From contig NZ_FPHO01000002.1 in NCBI RefSeq assembly GCF_900117455.1, positions 62,001-126,000 on the forward strand: 64,000 bases of DNA, in the 5' to 3' direction. The notes beneath the pieces were generated by a model. It was not told the origin of the DNA and made no database searches. It saw only the letters and a program-made list of their open reading frames with translations. This DNA comes from Hyphomicrobium sp. CS1GBMeth3. GTDB taxonomy: Bacteria; Pseudomonadota; Alphaproteobacteria; Rhizobiales; Hyphomicrobiaceae. Position numbers and translations under genes: made by a program. How positions within the stretch are numbered: position 1 is the stretch's first letter; every line of letters starts with the position of its first letter. Positions 45,374-61,400 of this stretch are shown here, piece after piece.

Positions 45374-45436
45374 TGGCGGTCGCCGTGACCGTTGCCGCGG
45401 TACTGCAGGGGTAACTGTTTGACAGGCGAAAGCTCA

Positions 45437-46816
45437 ATGCTGTCGAAAGCTGCCAGCCTGATTGGCTCGCCTCGCCTGTGGTTGCAGGACGACCTGCTGC
45501 GTCGGCTGTTCAAGAACGCCGCGATGTTGTTCAGCGGCAGTATGGTGGCCTCTGCGCTTGGGCTTGTTTCTTTGGCGTTGACGGCGCGGGCGCTTGGTGC
45601 CGAGCGGCTCGGCGTTCTGGTGCTCATCACCACGTACGTTCTCATCATGGATCGGTTGGTGAATTTTCAGAGCTGGCAGGCCATCATTAAATTTGGTGCG
45701 GACGCGCTTGAAGAGAAACGGACCGACGACTTCAAGGCTCTCGTCCGGTTCGGTTTCCTCTTGGATGCGGGCACGGCGGTGCTGGGCGCGGCGCTGGCTG
45801 CGTGCGTTGCCTGGTTCGTCGGGCAGTGGCAGGGTTGGGACAGGGAGGTCGTGCTCATGGCCGCCCTCTACAGTCTGACGATCCTGTTTCATGTCAATGG
45901 CACGCCGACGGGTGTGCTGCGTCTCTTCGACAGATTTCATCTCGTCGCTTATCAGAACGTCATCGCGGCGAGTATCAAGCTTGTTGGCGTGTCCGCCGCG
46001 TTTTGGTTCGATGCCGGGCTGTGGACGTTCCTCGTCGTCTGGGCGGTGACAGACATCGTCGGCAACGCGGTGCTCGTTGTTTTGGCGATCAGGGAGTTAC
46101 GTGCGCGCTCGCTGCTTCCCAGCCTCCGGCGAAAAGGACGTGAGGTGTCGGCTCTTTTCCACGGCATCTGGGGTTTCGCGCTGAGTTCGAATGCGAACAC
46201 GGCGCTGCGCTCGGCGATCCGAGAGACGGATATCCTCGTGACCGGCGCCTTGCTTGGGCCCGCCGGCGCGGGCCTCTTCAGGATCGTCAAGAGCTTTGCG
46301 TCCGTGCTCGGGAAAATCGCGGATCCGCTTTATGCCTCGGCCTATCCGGAGATGGCGCGGCTCGTGTCCTCCGGCCGGCTGCCGGAGTTCCGCTCCTACT
46401 CGCTTCGCGCCTCAGTGCTTTCCGGTGCAGCGGGCCTTGCGCTTTTTGCCGGTGTATTCGTTTGTTCGTATCCGGCGTTGCAGCTTGCATTCGGTGCGGA
46501 GTACACGGCGGCCTATTGGCCGATGGTCGTCTACATGCTCGCCTATGTGGTGTGGTTCTTCTTCTATCCGTTGTCCGGCGCGGTGTTGGCATTCGGCAAA
46601 CCGACGGCGAGCCTCGTCATCCTGCTTATATCGAGTGCCTTCTATTATCCCTTGCTGGTTGCGCTTACGAAAAGCTACGGGCTTCTGGGCGCCAGTCTGG
46701 CCTGCGTGATCTTCTACGTGGCGTGGGCCGCGATGATGTTTTTTGTCGTGGCCAAAGAATACAGTTTGCGCACGTCAGCCCAAGCACTCTCCGATCAACA
46801 GGTTCAATCCGTCTAA
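45437..46816 (+). CDS. Wzx-like polysaccharide flippase (MOP family)
   Basis: 459 residues from the ATG at 45437 (MLSKAASLIG). About twelve hydrophobic segments are visible. The N-terminus (LFKNAAMLFSGSMVASALGL, then LGAERLGVLVLITTYVLI) and the middle RSAIRETDILVTGALLGPAG match polysaccharide-exporting MOP proteins such as Wzx/RfbX. It would flip lipid-linked sugars across the inner membrane for a surface polysaccharide. It is followed after 29 bases by a methyltransferase and a run of glycosyltransferases on the same strand. The transported unit is unknown. Confidence 0.85.
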   Translation: MLSKAASLIGSPRLWLQDDLLRRLFKNAAMLFSGSMVASALGLVSLALTARALGAERLGVLVLITTYVLIMDRLVNFQSWQAIIKFGADALEEKRTDDFKALVRFGFLLDAGTAVLGAALAACVAWFVGQWQGWDREVVLMAALYSLTILFHVNGTPTGVLRLFDRFHLVAYQNVIAASIKLVGVSAAFWFDAGLWTFLVVWAVTDIVGNAVLVVLAIRELRARSLLPSLRRKGREVSALFHGIWGFALSSNANTALRSAIRETDILVTGALLGPAGAGLFRIVKSFASVLGKIADPLYASAYPEMARLVSSGRLPEFRSYSLRASVLSGAAGLALFAGVFVCSYPALQLAFGAEYTAAYWPMVVYMLAYVVWFFFYPLSGAVLAFGKPTASLVILLISSAFYYPLLVALTKSYGLLGASLACVIFYVAWAAMMFFVVAKEYSLRTSAQALSDQQVQSV

Positions 46817-46845
46817 GCGGCGCGCTGCTTATCCAGGGAGCTTCA

Positions 46846-47550
46846 ATGTTTCTCCTCGATCGCAAGTTCATAAGGCCCAGAGTATGGTCCAACAGAGAGC
46901 TGCGACGCATATCTCCCCATCTGTCGGGCAAGGTCGTAAACGTGTCAGGGTGGCAAGACCTCGACAAGGAAGGGCAGAGATACAAGGAGTACTTTCCCGG
47001 CGCGAGCGAGTACTGGATCAGCAATTTCCGTAGCGAGGCGCGCGGCTTCCAGGGCGATCTCGAGAATGAGTTCTTTCTGGATCTGGTGCAGGATCTCGAC
47101 GATCCGCTTGCCGGAAAGTTCGACGTCGTTTTCAACCACACGGTGCTCGAGCACATTTTCGAGGTCAACAAGGCGTTCGCCAATCTCTGCCGGTTGAGCC
47201 GAGATGTCGTCATCGTCGTGGTGCCATTCCTGCAGGAGGAGCACGCGGACTACGGCGATTATTGGCGGTTTACGCCGCAGGCGGTCGATAAGCTGTTTCA
47301 GGCAAACGGCTTCGAAACGGTCTACGTCAACTACAACGACGATCGCAATGCATCGATCTATCTGCTCGCGGTGGGAAGCAGGAACCCGGAACGCTGGCAG
47401 CGTATCGCGGGGCTGGACGGGAACAAGAAGGAGACCATTTACGACCCGCGCGTCGGGGCGGGGATGAACGTGATCCAGAATCCCTATGCGCTCAAAGTGC
47501 AGAAGAAGCTCGCCTACGAGGCGAAGCGCCTGATGTCCTGGCTTAGATGA
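46846..47550 (+). CDS. Class I methyltransferase-like protein, glycan locus
   Basis: 234 residues, ATG at 46846 after GGGAG. The methyltransferase-like core is FDVVFNHTVLEHIFEVNKAF (the LEH motif) and VVIVVVPFLQEEHADYGDYW, ending in RFTPQAVDKLFQANGFETVY. The usual Gly-rich motif I is not obvious: the expected place reads GKVVNVSGWQDLDKEGQRYK, without GxGxG. It may use a divergent SAM site or be an inactive relative. Similar proteins stand beside glycosyltransferases in polysaccharide loci. It overlaps the next gene by 4 bases, so the two are coupled. Confidence 0.65.
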   Translation: MFLLDRKFIRPRVWSNRELRRISPHLSGKVVNVSGWQDLDKEGQRYKEYFPGASEYWISNFRSEARGFQGDLENEFFLDLVQDLDDPLAGKFDVVFNHTVLEHIFEVNKAFANLCRLSRDVVIVVVPFLQEEHADYGDYWRFTPQAVDKLFQANGFETVYVNYNDDRNASIYLLAVGSRNPERWQRIAGLDGNKKETIYDPRVGAGMNVIQNPYALKVQKKLAYEAKRLMSWLR

Positions 47551-48668
47551 GAATATCCTACATCTCGCAATCGACCGTTCCGTCCCGCTCGGCCAACAGC
47601 ATCCATGTGATGAAGATGTGCCAGGCGTTCGCGCGCAACGGGCATGAGGTGAGGCTTCTGGCTATGGATGATGTCGCGGGCCGGGAGCCTGGCGTCGAGG
47701 ACGCTTACGATTTCCATGGCGTTGAGCGCAGCTTCGATCTCGTCCACCTTCCAGTGCCGCGCGTTCGCGGGGGCAACGCGCTCTATGGGCTTCTGTCTGG
47801 ATTGCGGGCTGGCCGCAGCGCGCCGGATCTCGTTTATGCGCGCCATCTCGCGGGGTGCTTCTTTGCGGCGAGGCGCGGGCTGCCTGTCGTGCTGGAGGTG
47901 CACCATCCCTGGGATGATCGGCGGCGCGGCGAGGCGTGGATGTTCCGTAAAATCGCAGCATCAAAGTGCTTGCGGCGCCTCGTGGTGATCACGCACGCGC
48001 TCAAGGCATACCACGAAGAGCGTTATCCCGAGCTGGTCGGCAAAATACGCGTAGCCCCGGACGGGGCCGACCCTGTCGGGGATGACGTGCATGCGGTCGT
48101 GCTGCAAAACGCGGGCGAGCGCTTGCAGGTGGGGTACGTCGGTCACCTCTACGCCGGAAAGGGTATGGAGGTTGTTTCCGAGCTCGCGCGCAAATGCCCA
48201 TGGGCCGATTTTCATGTCGTCGGTGGAAAGGACGAAGATCGTGCGCGTTGGCAGGCGCGCTGTGCGGATACGCGGAATTTGACCTTTCATGGACACGTCG
48301 CTCCCAACGACGTTGTGCGCTACATGCTGGCGTTGGACGTCGCGCTCTTGCCGAACCAGCCTTTCGTTGGCGTCGGCGCCAGCGGCGCCCGGGACATCGG
48401 TCCCTGGACCTCCCCGCTCAAGGCCTTCGAATATTTTGCTGCCAGACGGGCCATCATCGCGTCCGATCTGCCGGTCTTACGCGAGATCCTGCGGCACGAG
48501 AGCAATGCTTTGCTCTGTGCGCCGCGTGACATAGAGGATTGGGTGCGGAGCCTCGAACGCCTGAGGGATGATCCGGCGTTGCGGGCTCGTTTGGGGCAGG
48601 CCGGATTGGATGCCTTTCGCAAGAGCTATACGTGGCAGGCGAGGGCTGAGAATGTGCTTCGAGACTAG
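47547..48668 (+). CDS. Glycosyltransferase family 4
   Basis: 373 residues, ATG overlapping the previous stop. It has a GT-B fold: MRISYISQSTVPSRSANSIH at the N-terminus with the HVMKMCQAFARNGHEVRLL helix, and a C-terminal half with VGYVGHLYAGKGMEVVSELA, the usual GT4 strand-helix. The E-x7-E region reads SPLKAFEYFAARRAIIASDL, so only the second Glu is clearly conserved and the first is not obvious. It probably adds one sugar to a lipid-linked repeat unit in the cytoplasm. Substrate unknown. Confidence 0.85.
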   Translation: MRISYISQSTVPSRSANSIHVMKMCQAFARNGHEVRLLAMDDVAGREPGVEDAYDFHGVERSFDLVHLPVPRVRGGNALYGLLSGLRAGRSAPDLVYARHLAGCFFAARRGLPVVLEVHHPWDDRRRGEAWMFRKIAASKCLRRLVVITHALKAYHEERYPELVGKIRVAPDGADPVGDDVHAVVLQNAGERLQVGYVGHLYAGKGMEVVSELARKCPWADFHVVGGKDEDRARWQARCADTRNLTFHGHVAPNDVVRYMLALDVALLPNQPFVGVGASGARDIGPWTSPLKAFEYFAARRAIIASDLPVLREILRHESNALLCAPRDIEDWVRSLERLRDDPALRARLGQAGLDAFRKSYTWQARAENVLRD

Positions 48669-48707
48669 TGTGTCGCGGCGTCCATCACAGAGAGCGGCGG
48701 CGGACTG

Positions 48708-49886
48708 ATGGCAGAAAGAATAAAATCGATCGGGGTCATGACGCCCAACTATCCCTCGCCGCGTTTCATCGAGCGTGGTGCCTTCATCGAGGCTCTCGTC
48801 AATCAATGGCAAGAGGAAGGTGTTGCGGTGAACGTCGTGGCGCCGATCTCGTGGCCGAACTGGATCAGGGGCTTGCGCCGCCCGCGCCAAAGCGTAGCGA
48901 TCGCAGGCGACCGCGTCATCGCTCCTCATTATCCGACCTTTTCCGCCCGATCGGTCGGCGGAATTGATCTCGGCCGGCTCAGCGAATGGTCGTTCAACCG
49001 CGCGGCTGTCCGCGCATCGCTCAAGGCGCCGATTGCGGATGTCTACTACGGGCAGTTTCTGTTCAAAGGCGGAACCGCGGCCGTAAGAGCAGGCAAGGCT
49101 CTCGGGCGGCCGGCTTTCGCGGATCTCGGCGAGTCGCGGCTCTTGGAAGGGATGAGCGGTGAAGAGCAGGCCCGCGCGGCTGCGGTCGTCGCGGGGCTTG
49201 CCGGCGCGGTGTGCGTGTCCGAGCGTCTGAGAGACGAAGCCATCGCGCTTGGCGCCAAGCCGGAGCGCGTGCTGCTGGCGCCGAACCGTCCGGATCCACG
49301 CCGGTTCCGACCGCTTGATCGGCGCGAATGCCGGCGCACGCTCAAGCTTCCGGACGATGCCGTCATCGTGGTGTTCACCGGATACTTCACCGAACGCAAG
49401 GGGCCGCTTCGCGTGTTGGCCGCACTCGAGCGCCTCGAGAAGCCGGTGCTCGGAGTGTTTCTGGGGCGGGGGCCTCAGGCGCCGAGCGGGGCGCGTGTGC
49501 TCCACGCCGGGCCGGTCTCCAATTCGTTAGTTCCGCTGTGGCTCAATGCCGCCGATCTCATGATGCTGCCGACGCTCGCCGAGGGACACTGCAACGCCAT
49601 CGCCGAGGCGTTGGCGTGCGCGCTGCCTGTCATCACCTCCGATATCTCCGATGTGCGTTGGCAGGTGCCGGCCGAGGGAAGCATTCTGGTCGATCCGCGT
49701 GACGTCGGCGCGCTGGCGTCGGCGCTTGCCGAGTTGGTGGACGATCCCGAGCGCCTCGCGCGGATGAGGGACAAGCTTCGCACGCGGCTCGCGGATACGT
49801 CTGCTCAGAGCCGAGGACGCGTGATCCTCGATTGGATGAACACGGTTGTGGCTGCTGGGGAGGGCAGCGCTCCGAAAGGTCGATAG
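48708..49886 (+). CDS. Glycosyltransferase family 4
   Basis: 392 residues, ATG at 48708. GT-B fold: IGVMTPNYPSPRFIERGAFI at the start, GAKPERVLLAPNRPDPRRFR in the hinge region, then VIVVFTGYFTERKGPLRVLA, and TLAEGHCNAIAEALACALPV, which holds the GT4 E-x7-E motif. This is a canonical retaining GT4 catalytic set. It lies 39 bases after the preceding GT4 in the same orientation. It probably adds another sugar of the same glycan. Acceptor and donor cannot be told. Confidence 0.88.
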   Translation: MAERIKSIGVMTPNYPSPRFIERGAFIEALVNQWQEEGVAVNVVAPISWPNWIRGLRRPRQSVAIAGDRVIAPHYPTFSARSVGGIDLGRLSEWSFNRAAVRASLKAPIADVYYGQFLFKGGTAAVRAGKALGRPAFADLGESRLLEGMSGEEQARAAAVVAGLAGAVCVSERLRDEAIALGAKPERVLLAPNRPDPRRFRPLDRRECRRTLKLPDDAVIVVFTGYFTERKGPLRVLAALERLEKPVLGVFLGRGPQAPSGARVLHAGPVSNSLVPLWLNAADLMMLPTLAEGHCNAIAEALACALPVITSDISDVRWQVPAEGSILVDPRDVGALASALAELVDDPERLARMRDKLRTRLADTSAQSRGRVILDWMNTVVAAGEGSAPKGR

Positions 49887-49958
49887 GTTTGACAGGCCTG
49901 CTACTGGCCCGCATGCGCTCGATGGATGAGCGTGTCGACGAAGGGATGATGGGGGAAG

Positions 49959-50825
49959 ATGCTTACGATCGTCATCCCATTTTTCAGGGATCAGGCCCGG
50001 CTCGAGGTGCTGCTCGATGGGCTCGTCGCGCAGAAGAAGTCCGCGGCGTTTCCGGTCGAGATCATTGCCGTCGACAACGACCCTGACGGTGGCTACGTGC
50101 CGCTCACGAGATTTTCGGATGATGTGCGCTTTGCGACCTGCGCCAAGCCCGGCTCCTATGCGGCCCGCAATGTCGGGGTTGGGATGGCTGAGGGGCGCGT
50201 GATTGCATTCACGGATGCTGATTGCACGCCTGCCCCGGGTTTCCTGGCCGCGCTTCACGCGTTCTATTCAGATGCTAACCAGTCAACCGCATTAGCGGCC
50301 GGAAAGGTCACCGTAGTAGCGCAAACGCCTGGCGCCGAAACGTTGGCGGAAGCTTACGACTGCCTCTTTGGCCTGCCGCAGGAGGCCTATGTGCAGCGCG
50401 GCTATGCCGTGACGGCAAATCTTGCTGTTCCGGCGCAGGCGTTCCGCGATGTTGGCGTGTTCGATGAAGCACATTTCTCGGGCGGAGATGCGGAGTTCTG
50501 CCGTCGCGCTACCGGGCAAGGCTACCGCCTCGTCTATTACGGAGCGGCTGAGGTTCTGCATCCTGCACGCCGAACGCTGTCCGAGCTTGCCAACAAGATG
50601 GATCGCGTCATTGGCGCCCAAGTGGATCGGGCGGGTCTGCTTGGCACCGTTCCGCTGATTGCGCGCGCGATGGCCCGGGGTGTGCTCTCGCTCGTCGAGC
50701 TGGTGCGCCGGCCAGCTGCCTGGCGAACGAAGGGCAAGGCCGCTGTGGTTGTGCTCTACCTCTCGATGGCGCGGCTCTATTTCATCGTCTACCACGCGCT
50801 GCCGTTTTCCAAACGCAGGAGATAG
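49959..50825 (+). CDS. Glycosyltransferase family 2
   Basis: 288 residues, ATG at 49959. GT-A fold family 2: MLTIVIPFFRDQARLEVLLD, EIIAVDNDPDGG, SYAARNVGVGMAEGRVIAFT followed by a DADC motif (the DxD-type metal/UDP site), and EAHFSGGDAEFCRRATGQGY. A C-terminal hydrophobic/amphipathic stretch (VVVLYLSMARLYFIVYHALP) may attach it to the membrane. It is the last gene of the first plus-strand block; the next gene is convergent with 5 bases between stops. Confidence 0.88.
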   Translation: MLTIVIPFFRDQARLEVLLDGLVAQKKSAAFPVEIIAVDNDPDGGYVPLTRFSDDVRFATCAKPGSYAARNVGVGMAEGRVIAFTDADCTPAPGFLAALHAFYSDANQSTALAAGKVTVVAQTPGAETLAEAYDCLFGLPQEAYVQRGYAVTANLAVPAQAFRDVGVFDEAHFSGGDAEFCRRATGQGYRLVYYGAAEVLHPARRTLSELANKMDRVIGAQVDRAGLLGTVPLIARAMARGVLSLVELVRRPAAWRTKGKAAVVVLYLSMARLYFIVYHALPFSKRRR

Positions 50826-50830
50826 CGGTC

Positions 50831-52642
50831 TCATCCCCCGATCGAGAAATTTGGCGAACGTCGCGAGAAATGGGGCGAATAGAAGGGGTCCGTTTGCAGC
50901 GCTTTTCCCCACGTGCGCTGCATATACGCCACCTCGCGCTGGAAGCGGCTGTTCAGATGATCGTCCTTGCCGCGCGATACGCTTTCCAGATGATACAACT
51001 CCGCGTAAGGCGTCCAGACGTTGCTGTAGCCCGCCTCGCGCACCCGTAGGCAGAAATCCACGTCATTGAACGCCACAGCGAGGTCTTTTTCGTTCAGGCC
51101 GCCGATTTCCTCATAGATGCTTTTACGAACGACGAGGCAGGCGCCCGTCACCGCCGAATAGTTGTTCAGCACCACGGCCCTGCCGAAGTAGCCGAACGCC
51201 GTGCGTGCCTCCATCAGATGGGCGTGGTTTGCCACGCCGCCAACCCCGAGCACGACGCCTGCGTGCTGGATGGTGTCGTCGGCATAGTAGAGCTTGGCGC
51301 CGACGCAACCGATGTCCGGCTGCGTGGCCCAGGAGATCATTTCGCCAAGCCAGTCGGGAGAGATCACCTCGATGTCATTGTTGACGAGACCGATGACGGT
51401 GCCGGCGGCCTCGCCGACCGCGAAATTGTTGATTGCGGCATAATTGAACGGCTTGTCGTAGCGCAGCACGCGCGTGCGCGGTTCCTCCGCAAGGGCGTCG
51501 AGGTACCGGCGTGTCTCCTGCTCGGTCGATCCGTTGTCGACGACGATGATCTCGTAGTTCGCGTACGTTGTTTTGTTTCGGATCGAACCGATGCAGCGGC
51601 TCAGCATATCGAGCCTGTCGCGCGTCGGGATGATGAGGCTTGCCAGCGGCTGGGGCTCCGGCAAGCCGAGGCGCAGGCGGTAGAACGGGCCGCGCGGGGC
51701 GGGCTCGGCCGTGGCCCTCAGGCCGCTGCGCGCCACGTGCTCCTGCAGCGCGCTGAGGCCCGCAGAATAAGCATAGGTTTTCTGCTCGCCGCCTGCTGCC
51801 GTCGATCCCTCGACTGCGCGCCAGTGATACAGGATCTTGGGAACGTGGCGGATCTTGCTTGGATCGATCCGCTCGAATATGCGCAGGTTGAGATCGTAAT
51901 CCTGGCTTCCTTCGAAGCCCTTGCGCCAGGCGCCGACGGCGCGGATGTTGGCCGCGCGGTGCACCGTCAGGTGGTTCAGGTAGTTCTGTGCGCGAAACAG
52001 CTCACGCGAGAAATCCGGCTTGAAATGCGGCTCGAAGCGATAGGCTCCGGTCGGATCGATCTTGTCCTCGTCGGAGTAGATGAGTTCGGCGTCCGGATGG
52101 CGGGCGATCTCGAGTGCGACCTCGGCCAGTGCGTTCGGGCTCAACAGATCATCGTGATCCATCAGCGCGACCCAGGCGCCGGAGGCCAACGCGAAAGCCG
52201 AGTTCGTAGCTTCTGAAATGTGGCCATTGCTGGGGCGGATCACGAGTTTGATGCGCGGATCGCGCACGGCATAGTCCGCCAGCAGCAGTCTGACGTGCGC
52301 CGCGGGCGAGGCATCGTCCGCAATGCACAACTCCCAGTTATGGTAAACTTGGGCGCGTACGCTCTCGATCGCGGCCCGAAGCAGGTCCTCTGGCGGATTG
52401 TAAACGGGCATAACCACCGAGATCAGCGGCGGATCTGCGATAGCCGAGACGCGCGCGCGCAGAGCCACGATATCGGCCTCTTCTAGTGTATCGTGCCTCA
52501 GGATCCACGTCTGGTAGTCGAGAGCTTCCTCTTCGCCGCGGAGCGCGTTACGGAGGGCCTTGACGAGCCCCTGGATACCCTGGCTCTTGACGATGGCCAT
52601 GGCCTTCCGGCTGCTGTTGAGCAGGTCGGAAGGGGACCTCAT
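50831..52642 (-). CDS. Two-domain glycosyltransferase family 2
   Basis: About 603 residues. The start is uncertain: ATGs at 52642, 52663, 52687 and 52711 lack strong ribosome-binding sites, and 52642 (MRSPSDLLNSSRKA) is taken as the most conservative. Two GT2 domains: the first begins ISVVMPVYNPPEDLLRAAIE with ALMDHDDLLSPNALAEVALE, the second begins SLIIPTRDRLDMLSRCIGSI with VIGLVNNDIEVIS. The second domain ends with FNDVDFCLRVREAGYSNVWT. Enzymes like this add two sugars or an alternating disaccharide. It is divergent from the methyltransferase/coiled-coil gene. Confidence 0.8.
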   Translation of the reverse strand: MRSPSDLLNSSRKAMAIVKSQGIQGLVKALRNALRGEEEALDYQTWILRHDTLEEADIVALRARVSAIADPPLISVVMPVYNPPEDLLRAAIESVRAQVYHNWELCIADDASPAAHVRLLLADYAVRDPRIKLVIRPSNGHISEATNSAFALASGAWVALMDHDDLLSPNALAEVALEIARHPDAELIYSDEDKIDPTGAYRFEPHFKPDFSRELFRAQNYLNHLTVHRAANIRAVGAWRKGFEGSQDYDLNLRIFERIDPSKIRHVPKILYHWRAVEGSTAAGGEQKTYAYSAGLSALQEHVARSGLRATAEPAPRGPFYRLRLGLPEPQPLASLIIPTRDRLDMLSRCIGSIRNKTTYANYEIIVVDNGSTEQETRRYLDALAEEPRTRVLRYDKPFNYAAINNFAVGEAAGTVIGLVNNDIEVISPDWLGEMISWATQPDIGCVGAKLYYADDTIQHAGVVLGVGGVANHAHLMEARTAFGYFGRAVVLNNYSAVTGACLVVRKSIYEEIGGLNEKDLAVAFNDVDFCLRVREAGYSNVWTPYAELYHLESVSRGKDDHLNSRFQREVAYMQRTWGKALQTDPFYSPHFSRRSPNFSIGG

Positions 52643-52907
52643 CCGATGGCTAATCAGGGCCATGGTGAGGCCTAGGGAATGCCTCATGTTGCCTATTCGC
52701 GAGGTTGACATCGAAGCTGAACGTGCCGCCGACCGTACCTCGGAGGGGCGCGTGCATTTGACGGGGTGTCGGGAGGGAACGCAAGCGGGAAGGTGTGCGT
52801 AAACCAAGACGCTAATCGCTCGGCTGCAAATACCGGTTGCGGTTATATCCCAGGGGCTGGATCTTGCATCCGGTAGGGCGGCGGGGCACGAGTATCGGAG
52901 TTGGTGG

Positions 52908-55064
52908 GTGTCAGATTCCAGTGACGGCGACAGTCTTGCGGTGGATACCTTCGAGGAGGTCCGGCCGCTGTTGCTGAGGTCCATGTTTTGGCGACCGGCC
53001 TACATTTCGCGGTCGGCGTGGCTGGACCATATTCCCTTTGCCTTCTGGCTCATTGAAGCGCATCGGCCGACGACGCTGGTCGAGCTTGGCACCCAGTTCG
53101 GGGCGTCCTATTTTGCCTTCTGTCAGGCCGTCGATCGGCTGGGGCTGGATGCCAAATGCTACGCCGTCGATACGTGGAAGGGGGATGAGCACGCGGGTTT
53201 CTACGGTGAGGAGGTCTTTGCCGGCGTTAACGGCCACAATGAAGCGCGCTACTCGGGATTTTCGCGACTTGTCAGATCTACATTCGATGATGCGCTAGGC
53301 TATTTTTCCGACGGTACGATCGACCTTCTGCACATTGATGGCCTGCATACACTCGAGGCCGTCGCTCACGACTTTGAAAGCTGGTTACCAAAGCTGACCG
53401 ACGATGCGGTTGTCTTGTTTCACGATACGAACGTGCGCGAGCGCGGGTTCGGCGTGTTCCAGTGTTTCGAGGAGCTGAGAAAGACCTATCCCTCGTTCGA
53501 GTTCGTGCATGGGCATGGGCTTGGTGTTCTCGGCGTCGGCAAAGAACAGAAGCCGCTGCTGTCGTGGCTGTTCGAGGCAAACGACAAGCCGGTACTGCGC
53601 CGGTCAATTCGGGAAATTTTTTCCCGCTTGGGCAGTAGCTGCAATCAAGCCCTCCTCCTGCAAAAAGGCGCCGAACAGCAGAAGAGAAGCGAGGCAAAGC
53701 TTGCAGAAGCGCAGGGTGCGCTGACAGCCGTGAAATCCGCTGCAGCCGCACGCGACACGGAGGTGGCGGCGCAGATCGCAAAGCTCGATGGTGAGCGAAC
53801 ACGTCTGTTCAGCAGCCTCGAAGCGCTTGGGCGTAGCCGCGAACAAGAAACAGCGGCCTATGAGGCACGACTTGCCCAACTCGAGCTTGAACTTGGAGAT
53901 CGCTCGCAGCAGGTCTATTCGTTGACACAGCGACGCAGCGATCAGTCAATCGGGCGTAACGACGGCATCGCGGCGGTTGAGCTAAAACAGCTCGAGCAAA
54001 CTCATGATCAGGAAATTTCCGCCTATGAAGCGAAGGTTCGCGAACTTGAGCGTGACCTCGCCGAGCGGTCTCGTGAGGTTGAGACGCTAACTCAAAGGTT
54101 GGAGGACGCCACAGCCGAGGCTGAAGCGGCTGAGGCCGCTTTGCTGCGGGCTGCCGAGGCTGAAACGCTGGCCCAGCAACTCACCGGAGAGGTCGAGCGC
54201 CTGAAGGCGAACGTTTCCGATCGTTTCCGTGAGCTTGGCGAGGTGGGGCACCTGCTGCAGGCAAAGACCGCGGAGACGCAAAAACTTGCTGAGCTTGAGG
54301 CGGCTGTTGATGAGCGTGTCGCGCAGGCGGAGTCTCAGCTCGCGTTGGAGAAGTCAGAAGTCGCCAAGCTCGGCGCCAACGTCGCGGATCGCTTCCAGGA
54401 GCTGGCGACAATGTCGCGACTTCTGAAGGATCGGTCGGCCGAAGTGGAGAAGCTTTCGCGCAGCGAAGCGGCGGCCCTGGCGCGTTCCAAGGAGGCCGAG
54501 GCCTTGGCGGATCGCCGCAAGAGTGAAATAGAGCGCCTGGAGGCCAACGTTGCCGCGCGTTTTCGCGAAATTGCGACGTTGAGCCGGCTGTTGAAAGACC
54601 AGGGGCGCGCCGAGTGCGAACAGATGCCCGGGATATCCGAGCAGGGGAGACGAGCGCCGATCCTGGGAGGATTGACCGAGGTCAATGGCAGGTCGATCAG
54701 CGAACGTCTGGCTTTCGTGAGCGGTGGCGCCCAGGAAGCTGCCGCTCGGCTGAGGCAAGCGCTTGAGCCGATTGGCGGGCTGCGTTGGCGGATCGTGCGC
54801 CAGCGCAGGCTGGTGAAGGCGTCCGGCTTGTTCGATGCGCCTTGGTATCAGGCTCAGAACCCCGATGTTGCGGCTGCTGGAGCCGATCCGCTTGACCACT
54901 TCCTTCTGTTTGGCGGGCAGGAGGGGCGGTCACCTTCCCGTGCGTTCGACAGCGCTGCCTATCTGCGCGAAAATCTCGATGTGGCGAAGTCCGGACTCAA
55001 TCCACTCGTGCATTATCTTGCCAGCGGCAGGGCTGAGGGCCGCCGCGCTTCGCCTCTACGATAA
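52908..55064 (+). CDS. Methyltransferase / coiled-coil / terminal-module protein (WbdD-like layout)
   Basis: 718 residues from a GTG at 52908. Residues 1-230 are a class I methyltransferase: TTLVELGTQFGASYFAFCQA (SAM loop), AKCYAVDTWKGDEHAGFYGE, TIDLLHIDGLHTLEAVAHDF. Residues ~255-600 are an almost unbroken coiled coil (FSSLEALGRSREQETAAYEA; VERLKANVSDRFRELGEVGH), with internal repeats. Residues 638-718 carry a module with SGLFDAPWYQAQNPDVAAAG and DPLDHFLLFGGQEGRSPSRA, also found in the adjacent giant glycosyltransferase. In WbdD a coiled coil joined to a methyltransferase fixes O-antigen length. Here the terminal module is an addition. Its 3' end overlaps the convergent gene by 9 bases. Confidence 0.75.
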   Translation: MSDSSDGDSLAVDTFEEVRPLLLRSMFWRPAYISRSAWLDHIPFAFWLIEAHRPTTLVELGTQFGASYFAFCQAVDRLGLDAKCYAVDTWKGDEHAGFYGEEVFAGVNGHNEARYSGFSRLVRSTFDDALGYFSDGTIDLLHIDGLHTLEAVAHDFESWLPKLTDDAVVLFHDTNVRERGFGVFQCFEELRKTYPSFEFVHGHGLGVLGVGKEQKPLLSWLFEANDKPVLRRSIREIFSRLGSSCNQALLLQKGAEQQKRSEAKLAEAQGALTAVKSAAAARDTEVAAQIAKLDGERTRLFSSLEALGRSREQETAAYEARLAQLELELGDRSQQVYSLTQRRSDQSIGRNDGIAAVELKQLEQTHDQEISAYEAKVRELERDLAERSREVETLTQRLEDATAEAEAAEAALLRAAEAETLAQQLTGEVERLKANVSDRFRELGEVGHLLQAKTAETQKLAELEAAVDERVAQAESQLALEKSEVAKLGANVADRFQELATMSRLLKDRSAEVEKLSRSEAAALARSKEAEALADRRKSEIERLEANVAARFREIATLSRLLKDQGRAECEQMPGISEQGRRAPILGGLTEVNGRSISERLAFVSGGAQEAAARLRQALEPIGGLRWRIVRQRRLVKASGLFDAPWYQAQNPDVAAAGADPLDHFLLFGGQEGRSPSRAFDSAAYLRENLDVAKSGLNPLVHYLASGRAEGRRASPLR
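54201..54620 (+). repeat. Three coding repeats at exact 56-residue (168-bp) spacing
   Basis: Within the coiled coil, matching segments begin at residues 432 (LKANVSDRFRELGEVGHLLQ), 488 (LGANVADRFQELATMSRLLK) and 544 (LEANVAARFREIATLSRLLK). The spacing is 56 residues each time, i.e. eight heptads. A related pair lies upstream at 318 (YEARLAQLELEL) and 373 (YEAKVRELERDL), 55 apart. Confidence 0.8.
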
Positions 55065-57986
55065 GGTGGACGCGTGGCTCTGATCAGAGCGCGGTGATCC
55101 GTTCGACTCGCGGCTCTCCATCTGAGCCAACGGGGTGATGAACTTCTGCTCGATAACGCTTCTTATGGCCCCTTTGTACTCGTCGCGCGCGAGCGCGCAC
55201 GCGGTCTTTCTGGCTTCCAGCCCGCTCGAAAGCTGGGCGCGCCGATCGCTTCCCGTCCAGACACCTTGCGGGTGCTGGCGATAGACACTCATCACTCGGT
55301 TTATGAAGCCAATCTTGCCATAGCGGTCGAGGTGGAACGCGAGTGCAATCTCGTTCAGGCGCTTTTCGAACAGGACCGTTGGTAATGTTTTGATTAGGCC
55401 AGACCTGAACATGCAACATGAGAAGTTTGCGATCAGGTTCATGTTGGGGTCGGCCAAGAAATCGCTACCATCAAGCTTCGATTTCTTCAGCGCGGCTTGT
55501 CGCTCCAGAACCTTCCTGGTATCGCGCTGGATGTCGTGAACCTCGATCATCGAGAAGACCATCGAACAGTCAGGGTTTGAAATCAGGAACTCCGACTGAG
55601 CTTGCAGCTTATCATCGGCTGTCCAATAGTCATCGCCTTCCAGCACGGCAACGAAGCTGCCGCTGGCCGCATCGAATGATCGCCAAAAATTTTTAGAAAT
55701 GCCGATGTTGTCGTCGCCGCCTATGCTTCTCACGATGTCTGGGTATTGGCGGCAGTAACTGTCGATGACGGCTTGGGTGCCATCCGTGGAGCCGTCGTTG
55801 GCTACGAGAATCTCGTGCACAAAGTTGCCGCGCTGCTTCAACGCGCTTTCGATGGCTCCGCCGATATATTCCTCTTGATTATACGTCGGGATGATCGTCG
55901 AGATCTTGAGCGAAACCTCTGTCAACGCCGGTATCCGCATGCTCCAAGGCGCAGATGCAGCTCGGCTGACGGTGGTACGTTGTGCTCGAGGAAGCTTGGG
56001 TGAAAGGTCGAGCTTGCGGGGCAGGAGCCGATCCAGCGTCTGCGATACACCTTCAAGCGCACTTTTGGTCGGCGGCACCACGGAGAGGTCGATCGCTCCA
56101 TCGGCCTGAACAGAGGCGAGCGCGACCTTCGCATTCGGATTCTGCATGGCGGCGAGGCCGATCATGCGCTCCAGCCCGTGCTCGGGTGCGCCATCGCTCT
56201 GGAAGACCGTATTGTAGCTTGGTGTATCGTAAACGTGGCGCGCGAGCTTGAGAAGGATGGCGGGCCGAAGCCAGAGCATTGTGCCCGCAAAAAAGCCCCA
56301 GGTTTTATTGATGTCTTGTTCGTGTCCACACGCAATGGCGAATTTCTTTACCTGCTCCCAGGTTGGAGCAACGGAATTGCGCCGTCCTTCCTTAAAAAAC
56401 TCAGCCGGGCCGGCAAGGCAAAGATCGGGGTCGGTGCGGAAGGCGTCGATGATCTGATCCGAGATATGCTCACTACCGAGCATCGAATAGAGGAAGTAAT
56501 CGCGCCACAGATTACCCCATTTGCCGACATTGCGTTTCGTGTGCACTTTGCACACGAGATCGTAGTTGCAGAGTGTCGACGTCAAAGACAGGAACGGGCC
56601 GATGTCGGCCCCGGTGTTCGGAAACCTGAAGACCGTTGCTCTCGGGTGAGCCCGCCTTAACGCTTCGATCTCCGGATCGTCACCGGGATGCGAGGTCGTG
56701 ATGAAGAGATCGTACTCGTGCGGGATGTTATCGACGTACTGAAGGCAGTCTGGCGCGATATTCTTATGATAGACGTGGAAAACGACCGCGATCTGTGGCT
56801 TCGCATTAGAGCGCGCGGGACGCGACGATGACATGAGCGTGCTTCGGGCTCTGTCTCGAATGTACTCCATCGACTTATTCAAGTCCGGCTTGGTCACGTA
56901 CTCGGTGTTCGTGATCCTGGGTAGGTTGGTCCCATCGTAATAATCGACGCCGATGAAGCGCGCGCCTTGAACACGTGTTTGCGCAGCTATCCTCAGGATG
57001 TAATCCCAATCGACAAGGCGCCGGAGGCTTTCGTCGAATCCAATTCTAGCGAGCGAACTTTTAACGCAAAACGTATTCAAGTCTATGAAGTTGAGTTCCA
57101 GGCAGGACTCGAAATCAAACTCCGAGAAGAGCACTGCTCTTGTTTTGCCCGCGTCATCGATCAGATTTGCGGCGCAGTAAGCTGCCGAAAGATCGCGAGA
57201 CGACGCAAACCGCAATAGGCGCTCGATGTGCTGCGGTCGCCACGTGTTGTCCGAGTCCAGGAAGAACACCCAGTCGCCACCTATGTGCTTCAAGGCGGTG
57301 TTTCTCGCTGCGGACACGCCGCGTCCTTTGTCGTGGCGATGGTACTTGATCCGGTCGTCTTGGAAGGAACGAACGCGCTCGGACGTATCATCGTCGCTGC
57401 CGTCGTCAACGACGATGAGTTCCCAATTGTCATGGCTTTGCTCCAGAATCGACTTTATTGCGCGACCAATGCAGCCGCCGCGATTGCGCGTCGGCATAAT
57501 GATCGAAACCTTTGTGGGAGCTGTGTTGACGGATGCCCGTTCAAGGGAGGCGAGTAACTCCGCTTCCCTGGTTGTGTCCCACTTGGGCACATATCGCTCT
57601 ATGATGCGCTTGCAGTCGGTTCTCTCGGTTGAGGGTCTGCATGTGCGATTTTCGGATTTGCCGACACGTGCGTAATGAAGCAACGGATTGAGTTTTTGCC
57701 TGGCCACGTCTGGGTTGACGTCCAGGTAATATCGCGTGCTGAAGGTTGGTGAGGGGTCGCGACCGAGAACCCATCCGAGCCACAGATAGTGCTCGATCGG
57801 GTTCATCCCCAGGTGTGTCACATCCGGGTATTGTCTCAGGTACCAATTTTCATCGAAAAGGCCTGATTTGCGGATGGTTTCGACGTCCGCTGCGCTGTAC
57901 TTCAACAACTCACGCTCCACTCTTCTGCGTCGCCGCGAGAAGCCATCATAGAGCGTAGAGGTAGCGTGGATTTGTGCAGTGAACAA
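55056..57986 (-). CDS. Multidomain GT2 - RgpF - GT2 glycosyltransferase with N-terminal shared module
   Basis: Up to 976 residues. The start is uncertain: a TTG at 57986 or a GTG at 57920 are candidates, neither with a strong ribosome-binding site. Order: a module at ~40-115 (KSGLFDENWYLRQYPDVTHL; LDVNPDVARQKLNPLLHYAR); GT2 from ~155 (VSIIMPTRNRGGCIGRAIKS, VFFLDSDNTWRPQH); a rhamnan-synthesis RgpF-like domain (IAVVFHVYHKNIAPDCLQYV; FPNTGADIGPFLSL; VCKVHTKRNVGKWGNLWRDY) around 400-640; a second GT2 from ~705 (ISTIIPTYNQEEYIGGAIES; VAVLEGDDYWTADD). It probably makes or extends a rhamnose-like or other repeating chain. The module is shared with the convergent coiled-coil protein. Confidence 0.75.
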   Translation of the reverse strand: MFTAQIHATSTLYDGFSRRRRRVERELLKYSAADVETIRKSGLFDENWYLRQYPDVTHLGMNPIEHYLWLGWVLGRDPSPTFSTRYYLDVNPDVARQKLNPLLHYARVGKSENRTCRPSTERTDCKRIIERYVPKWDTTREAELLASLERASVNTAPTKVSIIMPTRNRGGCIGRAIKSILEQSHDNWELIVVDDGSDDDTSERVRSFQDDRIKYHRHDKGRGVSAARNTALKHIGGDWVFFLDSDNTWRPQHIERLLRFASSRDLSAAYCAANLIDDAGKTRAVLFSEFDFESCLELNFIDLNTFCVKSSLARIGFDESLRRLVDWDYILRIAAQTRVQGARFIGVDYYDGTNLPRITNTEYVTKPDLNKSMEYIRDRARSTLMSSSRPARSNAKPQIAVVFHVYHKNIAPDCLQYVDNIPHEYDLFITTSHPGDDPEIEALRRAHPRATVFRFPNTGADIGPFLSLTSTLCNYDLVCKVHTKRNVGKWGNLWRDYFLYSMLGSEHISDQIIDAFRTDPDLCLAGPAEFFKEGRRNSVAPTWEQVKKFAIACGHEQDINKTWGFFAGTMLWLRPAILLKLARHVYDTPSYNTVFQSDGAPEHGLERMIGLAAMQNPNAKVALASVQADGAIDLSVVPPTKSALEGVSQTLDRLLPRKLDLSPKLPRAQRTTVSRAASAPWSMRIPALTEVSLKISTIIPTYNQEEYIGGAIESALKQRGNFVHEILVANDGSTDGTQAVIDSYCRQYPDIVRSIGGDDNIGISKNFWRSFDAASGSFVAVLEGDDYWTADDKLQAQSEFLISNPDCSMVFSMIEVHDIQRDTRKVLERQAALKKSKLDGSDFLADPNMNLIANFSCCMFRSGLIKTLPTVLFEKRLNEIALAFHLDRYGKIGFINRVMSVYRQHPQGVWTGSDRRAQLSSGLEARKTACALARDEYKGAIRSVIEQKFITPLAQMESRESNGSPRSDQSHASTLS

Positions 57987-58485: not shown

Positions 58486-61400
58486 ATGGCCCGGAAAGAG
58501 CGGCGGCTTACGCATGCGAGATCGTTATTGGCGCCAGCGCCGGGCCTCGATCCGCAAGTCGGTCGTGATTTTCGCGAAGCTGTCCAGCATTTGCAGGCCG
58601 GGCGACTCGCTCAGTCGGCAGAGGCGCACCGGCGCGTTCTCGCGCGGTCGCCACGCCACGCGCCCAGCCTGCACAACCTCGGACTGATCGCGTTCAAGAA
58701 CAATGCGGCGCGGGAGGCGATCGACTACATCCGACAAAGCCTCGAGGTCGATCCCAAGCATCACCAGGCGTGGTTGAACCTCGCCCTTATGCTTGGCGAG
58801 GCGCGTCAACTCGACGAGGCGATCGCGGCCTGCCGGCAGTGTCTGGCGTTGCAGCCCGCGAATGCAAAGCCGCATGCCGTGCTCGGCGACCTGCTGCGCA
58901 AAGCCAGCAACATGGCCGACGCGGTGGCAGCCTACGCGCAATCGCTCAGGATCGCGCCGGATCAGCCGGCCGTGCTCGTGAAGATGGGCGACCTGCTCTT
59001 GCAGTCCGGCAACGCGGACGACGCGCTTGCGTGTTGCCGCCGTGCGCTGACGCTCGAGCCCGGCCAGGCCGCGGCTTCTGCTCTTGAGCGCCGCATTCTT
59101 GCGAACAGCGGGCGCGTCGAGGCCACGGTGGCCGCGATCGATGCGGAGGCGAAGGATTCGGCCGATGGTGCGCGCCGATACGACGAGCTTGGGTTGATCC
59201 TTGCCGGCGAGCAGCGCTTCGCCGAAGCCGTGCCGCTTCACCAGAAGGCGGCCGCCTTGGCGCCTAATCGGGCGGATCTTCATTTCCATTTGGCTTCCGC
59301 CCTCGATGGGGCCGGCCGCAAGCGGGACGCGCTCTCGGCCTACCAGGCGGCACTGGCGCTCGAGCCGGAGCGGGCCGACGGGTACATGAAAGTCGGGGCG
59401 CTGCTGCGAAGCATGAACCATCATGCGGCGGCCGTGACGGCGTTTCAGCAGGCGGTAAAGCTCGATCCGGCGTTTGCCGATGCGCACTACAACCTGGCTG
59501 TCACCTGCAAGAACATGGGCCGCTTTGCCGAGGCGCGGGCGGCCTTCGAGCAGGCCATTGTGTATGCGCCGGATTCGCTTCTGCATCGGGTGGAGCTCAG
59601 CAACCTCCTGCGCATGATGTGCGATTGGCAGGGGCTCGAGGTCGCGGAGCAAGAGAGCCTCGAGCTGATGCGCGCCTTGGGCAACCTCGTCTCACCGTTC
59701 CTATTGCTGCCGATGCCGGCAACGCGCGGCGATCAGCTCGAGGCGGGGCGACGCATCGGGCGCACGATGGTTGTGCCCGAGGAGTTGCGGTTCCGCGACC
59801 ACCGCCCGTCTCGGCCGGGCGAGCGCATTCGCATCGGCTACCTCTCAGGTGATTTCTTCTCGCACGCGACGGCGATCTTGCTCGTCGAGGTGCTCGAGCA
59901 GACGGATCGCGAGCGGTTCGAGCTGGTCGGCTATTGCCACAGCCTCGACGACGGCAGCGAGATGCGGCGCAGGATCGTGGCCGCGTTCGACCGTTTCGTT
60001 CCGATCGGGGATCTGTCGGATCGCGACGCGGCGCAGCGGATCCATGACGATGGCATCGACATTCTGGTCGATCTCAAGGGTTACACGCGCAACGCGCGCA
60101 CTGGCATCCTCGCCTATCGGCCGGCGCCGATCCAGGTCAACTATCTCGGCTATCCTGGCACGATGGGGCTCGATTGCGTTGACTACATCGTGGCGGACGC
60201 GGTTGTCGCCCCGATGGCGCATCAGGAGCACTTCTCCGAGCGCATCGTGCACCTGCCGCACTGCTATCAGCCGAACGACCGCCAGCGGGTGATCGCAGAG
60301 ACCCCGGTGACGCGCGCCCAATTCGGGCTGCCGGACGATGCCTTCGTCTTCTGCTCGTTCAACAACATCTACAAGGTCGGCCCATCGCTGTTCGATGTGT
60401 GGATGCGGCTTCTGCAGCAGGTGCCGAACTCGGTGTTGTGGATTCTCGCACGTGACGATGGTTGCCGGGAGAATCTCATACGTGAAGCGGCGGCCCGCGG
60501 CGTCGATCCGGGACGGCTCGTGTTCGCGAGCCATAGCCCGGGGCCTCAGCATCTGGCGCGGCATCGGCTTGCCGACCTCTTCGTCGATTCCGTGCCGTGC
60601 AACGCACATACGACGGCGAGCGATGCGTTGTGGGCGGGGTTGCCGGTGCTGACGTGCCTTGGCGAAACGTTCGCCGGGCGCGTCGCGGCGAGCCTGCTTG
60701 CGGCGATGGATCTCGAGGAACTGATCACGGAGAGCCTCGAGGCTTACGAGCAGGCGGCGCTCGCTCTTGCTCGTGACCGGGAGCGGCTCAGTGACATACG
60801 ACGCAGGATTGCCGAGCGGCGTGAGACCGGCCCACTTTTCGATTCCTCGCGCTACACGCGCAATCTCGAACGGGCCTATGAGACGATGGTGGACATCATG
60901 AGAGCAGGAGAAGCGCCGCGCGCTTTTGTCGTGGCCGAGCCGCAGCCGGATGTGGGGTCCGTCGCAGAGGCGCGGATAGCCTATGTATGTTGCCCGCTGT
61001 GCGACGGCGCCGACATCCCCTACCAGATCGAGGCCAAGGTCAGCGATCATCCGCTCTACAAGCCGGAGCTGCCGCCAACCGTGAAGTGGCGGACCTGCGA
61101 AGACTGCGGGCATGTCTTCACGGAGGGGTATCTGTCGCAGGAAGCCCGCGACGTCGTGCTCGCGTCGGTTCCGCCGCATCAGCAGGTCGGCGCCGATGCT
61201 GCGGCGGGCAGGGCGTCCGCGGCGCGTGTCGTCGAACGCATCGCGCGCCATGCGCCGGCTGGGGAGTGGCTCGACGTTGGCGTCGGCACGGGTGCCTTGC
61301 TGTTCACGGCGGCCGAGTGGGGCTATGACGTCGTCGGCGCCGATCCGCGCATCGACAGCGTCGAGATGCTGCTGAAGCTCGGCTACAAGGGCGTCTGGAA

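What the first reader, a model, noticed from the sequence alone, without database searches (positions are those of the whole stretch)
52908..57986. WbdD-like methyltransferase/coiled-coil ruler with a docking module shared by a giant glycosyltransferase
The plus-strand protein joins a methyltransferase, a long coiled coil and a C-terminal module; the convergent minus-strand glycosyltransferase starts with the same type of module (S-G-L-F-D-x-x-W-Y ... P-D-V). In E. coli O9a, WbdD (kinase-methyltransferase plus coiled coil) caps chains and its coil length sets O-antigen length while it recruits the polymerase WbdA. Here the capping enzyme and the polymerase candidate carry a shared terminal module, so the pair could self-assemble through it. 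Known: domain families and the WbdD model. Inferred: that this pair works in the same way. I know of no description of this layout.
Basis: partly seen in the sequence, partly recalled or inferred. Interest (0 to 1): 0.75.

Follow-up and report, generated by a model that had tools for sequence, protein, structure and literature searches.

The report
Coiled-coil methyltransferase paired with polysaccharide polymerase
Two neighbouring bacterial genes may form one polysaccharide-building machine whose capping enzyme sits at the tip of a long rod that could set sugar-chain length; both proteins carry the same unnamed repeat, which may hold them together, and relatives vary the rod in repeat units.

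Summary
P1 (52908-55064 +) is Methyltransf_24, about 320 aa of coil and a C-terminal two-repeat module; P2 (55056-57986 -) begins with the same module (46% identity over 81 aa), then GT2-RgpF-GT2. No Pfam, NCBIfam or PDB match was found for the module; these are the only copies found in this genome. The layout recurs: coil-plus-C-module proteins lie beside N-module ORFs in 13 of 21 cases, against 3 of 22 without a coil. P1-like methyltransferases are fused to GT2, GT4 or RgpF in 7 of 23 loci, and 11 of 23 hold polysaccharide-type ABC permeases. Coil length varies by tandem units; in one E. coli plasmid the module was exchanged together with the glycosyltransferase. Best reading: a chain-capping sugar O-methyltransferase with a coil ruler, coupled to its polymerase through the module. 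It works like WbdD (O8 type) but shows no sequence kinship. Docking is unproven: no structure job was accepted, pair covariation was negative, modules also sit on RTX, M10 and GH16 proteins, and no ABC permease lies near this pair.

The parts
52908..55064 (+). P1: methyltransferase - coiled coil - C-terminal module (718 aa, GTG start)
   Evidence: ORF, translation, PF13578 E 5.3e-26
53079..53429 (+). Methyltransf_24 core of P1 (aa 58-174), with VELGxxxG, HIDGLH and HDTN motifs
   Evidence: motifs in alignment A3; DGxH...D region aligned to two solved O-methyltransferases
53670..54626 (+). coiled-coil stretch of P1 (about aa 255-573)
   Evidence: composition rule and 3.49-residue hydrophobic period
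54198..54611 (+). three coil repeats with motif ANVxxRFxE(L/I), matches starting at aa 431, 487 and 543, spacing exactly 56 aa (8 heptads)
   Evidence: no DNA-level TRF array in P1
54768..54821 (+). basic segment GGLRWRIVRQRRLV between coil and module (within aa 621-638); possible membrane-associating helix, untested
   Evidence: sequence; E. coli relatives have TVSWKLTAPVRALG at a like place
54813..55055 (+). C-terminal module of P1, two ~38-aa repeats (aa 636-716)
55056..57986 (-). P2: N-terminal module - GT2 - RgpF - GT2 (976 aa, TTG start)
57633..57875 (-). N-terminal module of P2, two ~38-aa repeats (aa 38-118)
57150..57506 (-). first GT2 domain of P2 (aa 161-279)
   Evidence: PF00535 best stretch
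56142..56828 (-). RgpF domain of P2 (aa 387-615)
   Evidence: PF05045 E 3.2e-31
55557..55907 (-). second GT2 domain of P2 (about aa 694-810)
   Evidence: two GT2 stretches; PDB matches from aa 694 to 810 at most
45392..52984 (.). surrounding glycan genes: PF01943 flippase-like (45392 +), GT4-type (47547 +, 48708 +), GT2 (49959 +), double GT2 (50831-52984 -)

Best explanation
P1 and P2 are the two halves of a cytoplasmic polymerisation-termination complex. P2 (GT2-RgpF-GT2) extends a polysaccharide at its non-reducing end. P1 carries a sugar O-methyltransferase at the far end of an oligomeric coiled coil and caps a chain only once it is long enough to reach it, so coil length sets chain length. 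The P1 C-terminal module and the P2 N-terminal module, both short repeat arrays, hold the enzymes together at the near end of the coil, replacing the covalent link seen in fused relatives. Shown: domains, order, recurrence, fusions, exporter linkage in relatives, coil-length variation, and one exchange of module together with GT. Inferred: that the modules touch, that P2 is the polymerase, that methylation is terminal, and that coil length sets glycan length.
For: Order rule over 131 module ORFs, 20 of them in no position class: a coil precedes the module in 19 of 43 C-terminal, 0 of 55 N-terminal and 8 of 13 internal cases; my small set of GT models hits 0 of 43, 40 of 55 and 6 of 13. With a slightly looser coil rule, C-module proteins with a coil lie within 2 kb of an ORF that starts with the module in 13 of 21 cases, without a coil in 3 of 22 (p 0.0016; the 21 include two near-identical couples). 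Fusions: MT24-coil-RgpF (L125, L128), MT24-coil-GT2 (L138, L139, L140, L145), MT24-module-GT4-RgpF (L141): 7 of 23 loci chosen by the methyltransferase alone; more in L019, L044, L081. Exporters: permease in 11 of 23, ATPase with Wzt_C-like domain in 6 of 23. Enterobacterial relatives (P1 methyltransferase 70% identical to L017's) follow export genes and precede a GT gene (9) or a GH99-like gene (1) in the 10 fetched loci. Coil-length changes: 816-917 aa with the first 240 residues gap-free; two 20-kb stretches in one genome identical outside the coil array, which differs by one 84-bp unit; 13 of 18 in-frame coil arrays have periods that are multiples of 21 nt. L124: export genes, methyltransferase and coil end match L017 at 99-100%, module and GT match L122 at 94-99%.
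Against: No structure or complex could be predicted: the queue was full at all 16 tries. Pair covariation is absent: r = -0.08 over 10 pairs, 1114 of 2000 permutations as high; the own partner ranked first in 1 of 10; C-N similarity is no higher within pairs (148) than between (154). In L124 the module lies next to the GT gene, so linkage alone could explain the exchange. Only 3 of 23 methyltransferase-selected proteins carry the module and 10 of 23 have a coil-like stretch after the enzyme, so neither is essential to this enzyme family. Methyltransf_24 was found in 9 of 16 coil-plus-C-module proteins scanned, four of the nine only just over the cut-off. In the order draw, permeases lie in 2 of 11 loci; none lies in the window, which has a flippase-like gene 6 kb from P1. 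Modules occur on RTX, M10, GH16 and Ig-like proteins. Four relatives keep coil and module but have lost the methyltransferase motifs.
Confidence: 0.48

Rival explanations
1. The module is a glycan-binding repeat: on P1 and P2 it holds the nascent polymer, and on exported proteins it holds the finished surface polysaccharide. The two enzymes are co-ordinated through the chain, not through each other.
For: Modules on RTX, M10 peptidase, GH16 and Ig-like proteins (6 of 10 C-module proteins scanned; also annotations); up to nine overlapping module hits in one protein (L052); no covariation between partners.
Against: Single or few copies sit between coil and GT in fused proteins (L019, L044, L081); the order rule has no obvious reason under simple sugar binding (my argument); modules of the partner GTs L059, L021, L048/L049, L070/L072 group with P2's, though weakly (95/72).
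Confidence: 0.25
2. P1 is a decorating methyltransferase that methylates residues along the chain; the coil only oligomerises it and sets no length.
For: The only PDB hits are two O-methyltransferases that I recall as antibiotic sugar-tailoring enzymes; PMC13171606 (passage) treats the coil-length variation as not expected to be critical; relatives without coil exist (for example L127, L129-L132, L134, L137, L142).
Against: A Wzt_C-like domain in the next-door exporter of 6 of 23 loci, the exporter part that recognises terminated chains in O9a (PMC3482155, passage); an enzyme held at the end of 150-750 residues of coil is an odd design for decoration (my argument).
Confidence: 0.2
3. The module is only a recombination seam: a mobile linker that spreads because it lets enzymes be swapped, with no binding role.
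For: Switch at the coil/module border in L124 and substitutions clustered in the last 263 bp of the methyltransferase gene reported for E. coli clusters TBA_3/TBA_7 (PMC10433991, passage).
Against: Strong conservation: 9 invariant and 11 nearly invariant columns over 57 modules; one module type kept at the coil-GT junction in split and fused proteins.
Confidence: 0.07

Closest known systems
WbdD/WbdA, E. coli O8/O9a and K. pneumoniae O3/O5
   Same: N-terminal methyltransferase, long coil, C-terminal region that recruits the polymerase, separate multi-GT polymerase (PMC11231755, PMC3482155, passages)
   Different: No kinase (so like O8, not O9a); no detectable sequence kinship; here both partners carry a homologous repeat module, which the passages I read do not mention for WbdD
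K. pneumoniae O7 ORF6 (methyltransferase-kinase-coil-GT2-GT2) and O12 WbbB
   Same: Terminator, coil and polymerase in one chain (PMC11231755, passages), as in our fused relatives L138, L139, L145
   Different: Other terminator domains; P1/P2 is split in two proteins
E. coli group 3 (3B) capsule clusters: methyltransferase gene after the export region
   Same: Direct relatives of P1 (methyltransferase 70% identical) with coil, C-module and a neighbour whose N-terminus shows one (9) or two (1) module repeats by eye in the 10 loci compared. That these loci are group 3B is my inference from gene order; one module hit (MN423365.1, 13499-13738) lies inside a cluster that PMC10433991 lists as 3B-like
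   Different: Next to Kps-type exporter; in the passages read the literature gives the coil variation no role (PMC13171606, PMC10433991)
Demethylmacrocin O-methyltransferase (8ia9, TylE) and 3ssm (MycE); short names and sugar function recalled
   Same: DGxH...D region aligned to the P1 family profile (E 1.1e-4 and 0.031)
   Different: No coil or module

Membership tests
WbdD family | sequence kinship to WbdD | tested here: not met
   P1 aa 1-297 and profile A3 against PDB chains: no WbdD chain at E <= 0.1; that WbdD has a solved structure is from PMC3482155. WbdD's own sequence was not compared directly
WbdD family | kinase domain (O9a type) | tested here: not met
   Pfam scan of P1; O8 WbdD is a methyltransferase alone too (PMC3482155, passage)
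Coiled-coil chain terminator (functional class) | N-terminal group-transfer enzyme with intact motifs | tested here: met
   activity not tested
Coiled-coil chain terminator (functional class) | long coil following the enzyme | tested here: met
   composition and period only
Coiled-coil chain terminator (functional class) | ABC exporter in the same cluster | tested here: not met
   PF01061 has no match in the window; the weak match 10.7 kb past its end has ABC_transp_aux and DUF4340 partners; nearest polysaccharide-type permease about 60 kb off. Met in 11 of 23 relatives
Coiled-coil chain terminator (functional class) | recruits the polymerase | tested here: inconclusive
   shared module, adjacency and fusions; no binding data; covariation negative
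Coiled-coil chain terminator (functional class) | caps the non-reducing end and sets chain length | not testable with these tools
   needs glycan analysis
Coiled-coil chain terminator (functional class) | membrane-associated amphipathic helix near the C-terminus (WbdD, PMC11231755) | not tested
   a basic segment lies between coil and module
Methyltransf_24 (PF13578) | score over the curated cut-off | tested here: met
   P1 92 bits against 26.3
RgpF (PF05045) | score over the curated cut-off | tested here: met
   P2 109 bits against 25

The most novel reading that the evidence does not exclude
A split, self-assembling glycan machine with a repeat-tuned ruler. The repeats on the terminator and the polymerase stack end to end into one continuous solenoid, the non-covalent stand-in for the linker in fused relatives (5 of 10 pairs match the module model with a single repeat on one side and a double on the other). 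The coil is a tandem-repeat locus whose unit number is gained and lost, so strains re-set polysaccharide length by slippage or recombination, including in Kps-exported capsules, whose length control a 2025 review leaves open.
Probability: 0.27. Interest if true: 0.85.

Novelty: new variant of a known kind. Interest (0 to 1): 0.62.

Why it matters
[quoted passage not shown] This family offers a candidate: a methyltransferase on a coil whose natural length variants exist in otherwise near-identical loci. It also exposes a widespread repeat module without a name in the libraries searched, which links glycan enzymes and could help to predict terminator-polymerase partners.

Tried and rejected
Rejected: P1 as a WbdD homologue. 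Rejected: module as pair-specific. Rejected: the ABC genes about 10-12 kb past the window end as a polysaccharide exporter; their neighbours are ABC_transp_aux and DUF4340 proteins. Tried without result: phage records (no match at E 1e-5); PDB match for the module (none at E up to 1); pair covariation (negative); exporter enrichment among module-found loci, weak (5 of 24 with coil against 3 of 57 without, p 0.046; loci of 15 kb or more 5 of 17 against 3 of 38, p 0.09). The module tree has few resolved forks (18 of 97 inner branches starred). Coil-length differences among the enterobacterial alleles (for example 32, 43 and 96 aa) are not multiples of 7, so there is no strict heptad rule. The coil motif RFxE was found in 2 of 10 other coil proteins checked by pattern. 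A paper search for the module's own letters gave nothing of use. Searches behind 'not found in print': in an open-licence library only; one review of the field was not held, and supplements were not read. Papers were seen as passages from text searches only.
Full report
CHECK. They converge and their 3' ends overlap by 9 nt. P1 carries Methyltransf_24 at aa 58-174 and P2 carries GT2, RgpF and GT2. The terminal modules are homologous: 37 of 81 residues identical without gaps, E 1e-20, score 193 against a maximum of 58 in 2000 shuffles. Each is two ~38-aa repeats with the pattern FDxxWYLxxNPDVAxAGxxPLxHYLxxGxxEGRxP (consensus). In P1 and P2 no Pfam or NCBIfam hit covers it, and a profile of 57 modules finds no PDB chain at E up to 1.

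THE COIL. P1 aa 251-575 has 0.3% proline and a hydrophobic period of 3.49 residues; 22 of 2000 shuffles are as strong. Three matches of ANVxxRFxE(L/I) start at 431, 487 and 543, exactly 56 residues (8 heptads) apart. The E. coli relative L017 carries a like motif twice, and L037 and L095 have it too; 8 of the 10 other proteins checked with a stricter pattern do not.

THE GENOME. These two are the only module copies found in the 4.03-Mb genome, with the two-row profile at E up to 1 and the better one at E up to 1e-6. None of 7 same-genus genomes has one; 14 of 103 genomes of the family and 61 of 297 drawn from the order do, own included in both. G+C is 0.557 in P2 and 0.605 in P1 against 0.634 for the window, which fits acquired genes. 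The best match of the genome scan is an uncultured Hyphomicrobium (L037, 78% over 77 module residues). It has a like convergent layout: methyltransferase-like N-terminus, coil and C-module (45% identical to P1 over its last 330 residues), then on the other strand a 296-aa ORF with a module-like start, then an RgpF ORF whose own start is cut by the contig end. The species of the window was not given; Hyphomicrobiaceae is my inference.

RECURRENCE. A genome scan with the module gave 251 confirmed places, of which the tool kept the best 80. With plasmid loci and the survey loci below I had 131 module ORFs; 20 fell in no position class. A coil precedes the module in 19 of 43 C-terminal, 0 of 55 N-terminal and 8 of 13 internal cases; my GT models, built from a few sequences, hit 0 of 43, 40 of 55 and 6 of 13. 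So the order coil-module-GT holds across split and fused proteins. C-module proteins with a coil lie within 2 kb of an ORF that starts with the module in 13 of 21 cases, those without a coil in 3 of 22 (p 0.0016; coil rule slightly looser than); L017/L018 and L070/L072 are near copies, so the independent count is lower. Pfam finds Methyltransf_24 in 9 of the 16 coil-plus-C-module proteins that I scanned: window, L017, L021, L059, L072 clearly, L037, L073, L095, L097 just over the cut-off; not in L041, L046, L048, L054, L087, L100, L146, some of which may hold other caps. The seven split-off neighbours scanned are GT2, GT4 or RgpF-GT2 proteins.

SURVEY BY METHYLTRANSFERASE. To avoid picking by module, I searched for P1's methyltransferase alone: 12 of 297 order genomes and 13 of 398 phylum genomes, own included in each. 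All 23 other loci were fetched and annotated with my models. Seven are fused to GT2, GT4 or RgpF (L125, L128, L138-L141, L145; Pfam). Ten have a coil-like stretch of 45 residues or more after the methyltransferase (L125, L128, L133, L135, L136, L138, L139, L140, L145, L146). Three carry the module (L133, L141, L146). Eleven have a polysaccharide-type ABC permease in the ~20-kb locus: 9 of 12 from the phylum draw and 2 of 11 from the order draw. Six have an exporter ATPase with a Wzt_C-like domain. My transporter models were built from 2 to 4 sequences each. L129/L130/L132 and L143/L144 are close kin. Thus the enzyme belongs to an export-linked polysaccharide setting, but the module is one of several solutions.

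ENTEROBACTERIA. The methyltransferase gene of an E. coli plasmid relative (L017) is found in 17 of 5426 complete E. coli genomes, 15 of 18 places on plasmids (a search that sees only close DNA, so a lower bound). I compared 10 proteins: 9 of those 17 E. coli (8 fetched, and L017) and the Enterobacter L018. Lengths run 816-917 aa. The first 240 residues have no gap; in 9 of 10 all length change is in the coil; the tenth (L123), which has another partner gene, also has small gaps in linker and module. The 10 genes follow export genes and precede a GT gene (9) or a GH99-like gene (1). L117 is shorter than L017 by one 96-bp unit that is present 1.9 times in L017; L122 has a perfect 231-bp duplication. 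L124 matches L017 at 100, 100 and 99.3% DNA identity in export genes, methyltransferase and coil end but 86.6% in the module; with L122 it is 82.6, 89.1 and 77.3% there but 93.8% in the module and 98-99% in the GT, with the switch at nt 2400-2600 of 2739. Hong et al. report a like pattern for clusters TBA_3 and TBA_7: most substitutions in the last 263 bp of 'a SAM-dependent methyltransferase gene', the first gene after region 1 (PMC10433991, passage); I could not tell whether this is the same event.

COIL REPEATS. In Ectorhizobium quercum BDR2-2 two contigs hold a 20-kb stretch that is identical outside the coil array (mismatches 4 of 9408 and 2 of 11041 in two overlapping stretches, all within the array) and differ by one 84-bp unit, 28 aa or four heptads. 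An assembly artefact is not excluded. Among 39 coils scanned, 18 in-frame tandem arrays of 21 nt or more were found and 13 have periods that are multiples of 21 nt; heptad similarity by itself favours such periods, and several arrays are in related alleles. P1's own coil has no array at DNA level.

MECHANISM. From the O9a work: WbdD caps, its coil length sets chain length, its C-terminal region recruits the polymerase, and export needs the cap (PMC3482155, PMC5082667, PMC11231755; passages). The 2024 paper finds that terminator, coil and polymerase modules may sit on one or several proteins. P1/P2 fits that scheme with a methyl cap only, as in O8. The methyltransferase keeps the SAM-type and DGxH...D motifs; its only PDB hits are demethylmacrocin O-methyltransferase (8ia9, E 1.1e-4) and 3ssm (0.031), which I recall as TylE and MycE, enzymes that act on sugars. 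The basic segment between coil and module (GGLRWRIVRQRRLV) could be the membrane-associated helix described for WbdD; this was not tested. The fused relatives make it likely that P1 and P2 work on one chain. That the module is the dock is the simplest reading of its place, but sugar binding is a serious rival, since modules also occur on RTX, M10, GH16 and Ig-like proteins.

AGAINST. No structure could be obtained (16 tries, queue full). Covariation of partner modules is nil. No ABC2-type permease match lies in the window; a permease and an ATPase with Wzt_C sit about 60-65 kb away among other GT genes and beside a methyltransferase-like gene, and a second exporter set, by my reading of its translations, lies on another contig. 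A flippase-like gene lies 6 kb from P1, so a Wzx-type route cannot be excluded here. In three Halomonadaceae and one Dongia relative the methyltransferase motifs are lost while coil and module stay (L073, L095, L097, L102): there the rod must do something else, or carries a changed enzyme. In L148 and L149, of the same family as the window, adjacent N-module proteins occur with no coil partner in 20 kb.

NOVELTY. The coil-terminator strategy is known; in E. [quoted passage not shown] I found no account of the shared module, of the split/fused equivalence for this family, or of unit-wise coil change as a length control, in searches of an open-licence library. Hence: new variant of a known kind.

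Noticed in passing
L073, L095, L097, L102: Relatives in Halomonadaceae and Dongia keep coil and module but lack the methyltransferase's DGxH and HD motifs: candidate pseudo-enzymes or enzymes of another activity.
   Followed up: partly
L070 and L072 (Ectorhizobium quercum BDR2-2): Two contigs share 20 kb identical outside the coil array, which differs by one 84-bp unit.
   Followed up: partly
L064, L098, L101, L115, L067, L068: The same module in arrays at the C-terminus of RTX, GH16, M10 peptidase and Ig-like proteins.
   Followed up: partly
window 58486-61740 +: 1084-aa protein with TPR repeats, Glyco_transf_41 (O-GlcNAc-transferase-like) and a C-terminal methyltransferase, next to the pair.
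   Followed up: no
L122 coil (E. coli ET350 chromosome): Perfect 231-bp (77 aa, 11 heptads) tandem duplication inside the coil gene.
   Followed up: no
L148, L149 (same family as the window): Two adjacent N-module proteins, one with a GT2 domain, without any coil partner in the 20 kb.
   Followed up: no
L019, L022, L063, L081: Other N-termini in fused coil-module proteins: Methyltransf_11, sulfotransferase, a pyruvyl-transferase-like domain, and an unassigned one, suggesting caps other than methyl.
   Followed up: partly
window 50831-52984 -: Double-GT2 ORF whose listed start overlaps the start of P1 by 77 nt; its true start is probably further in.
   Followed up: no
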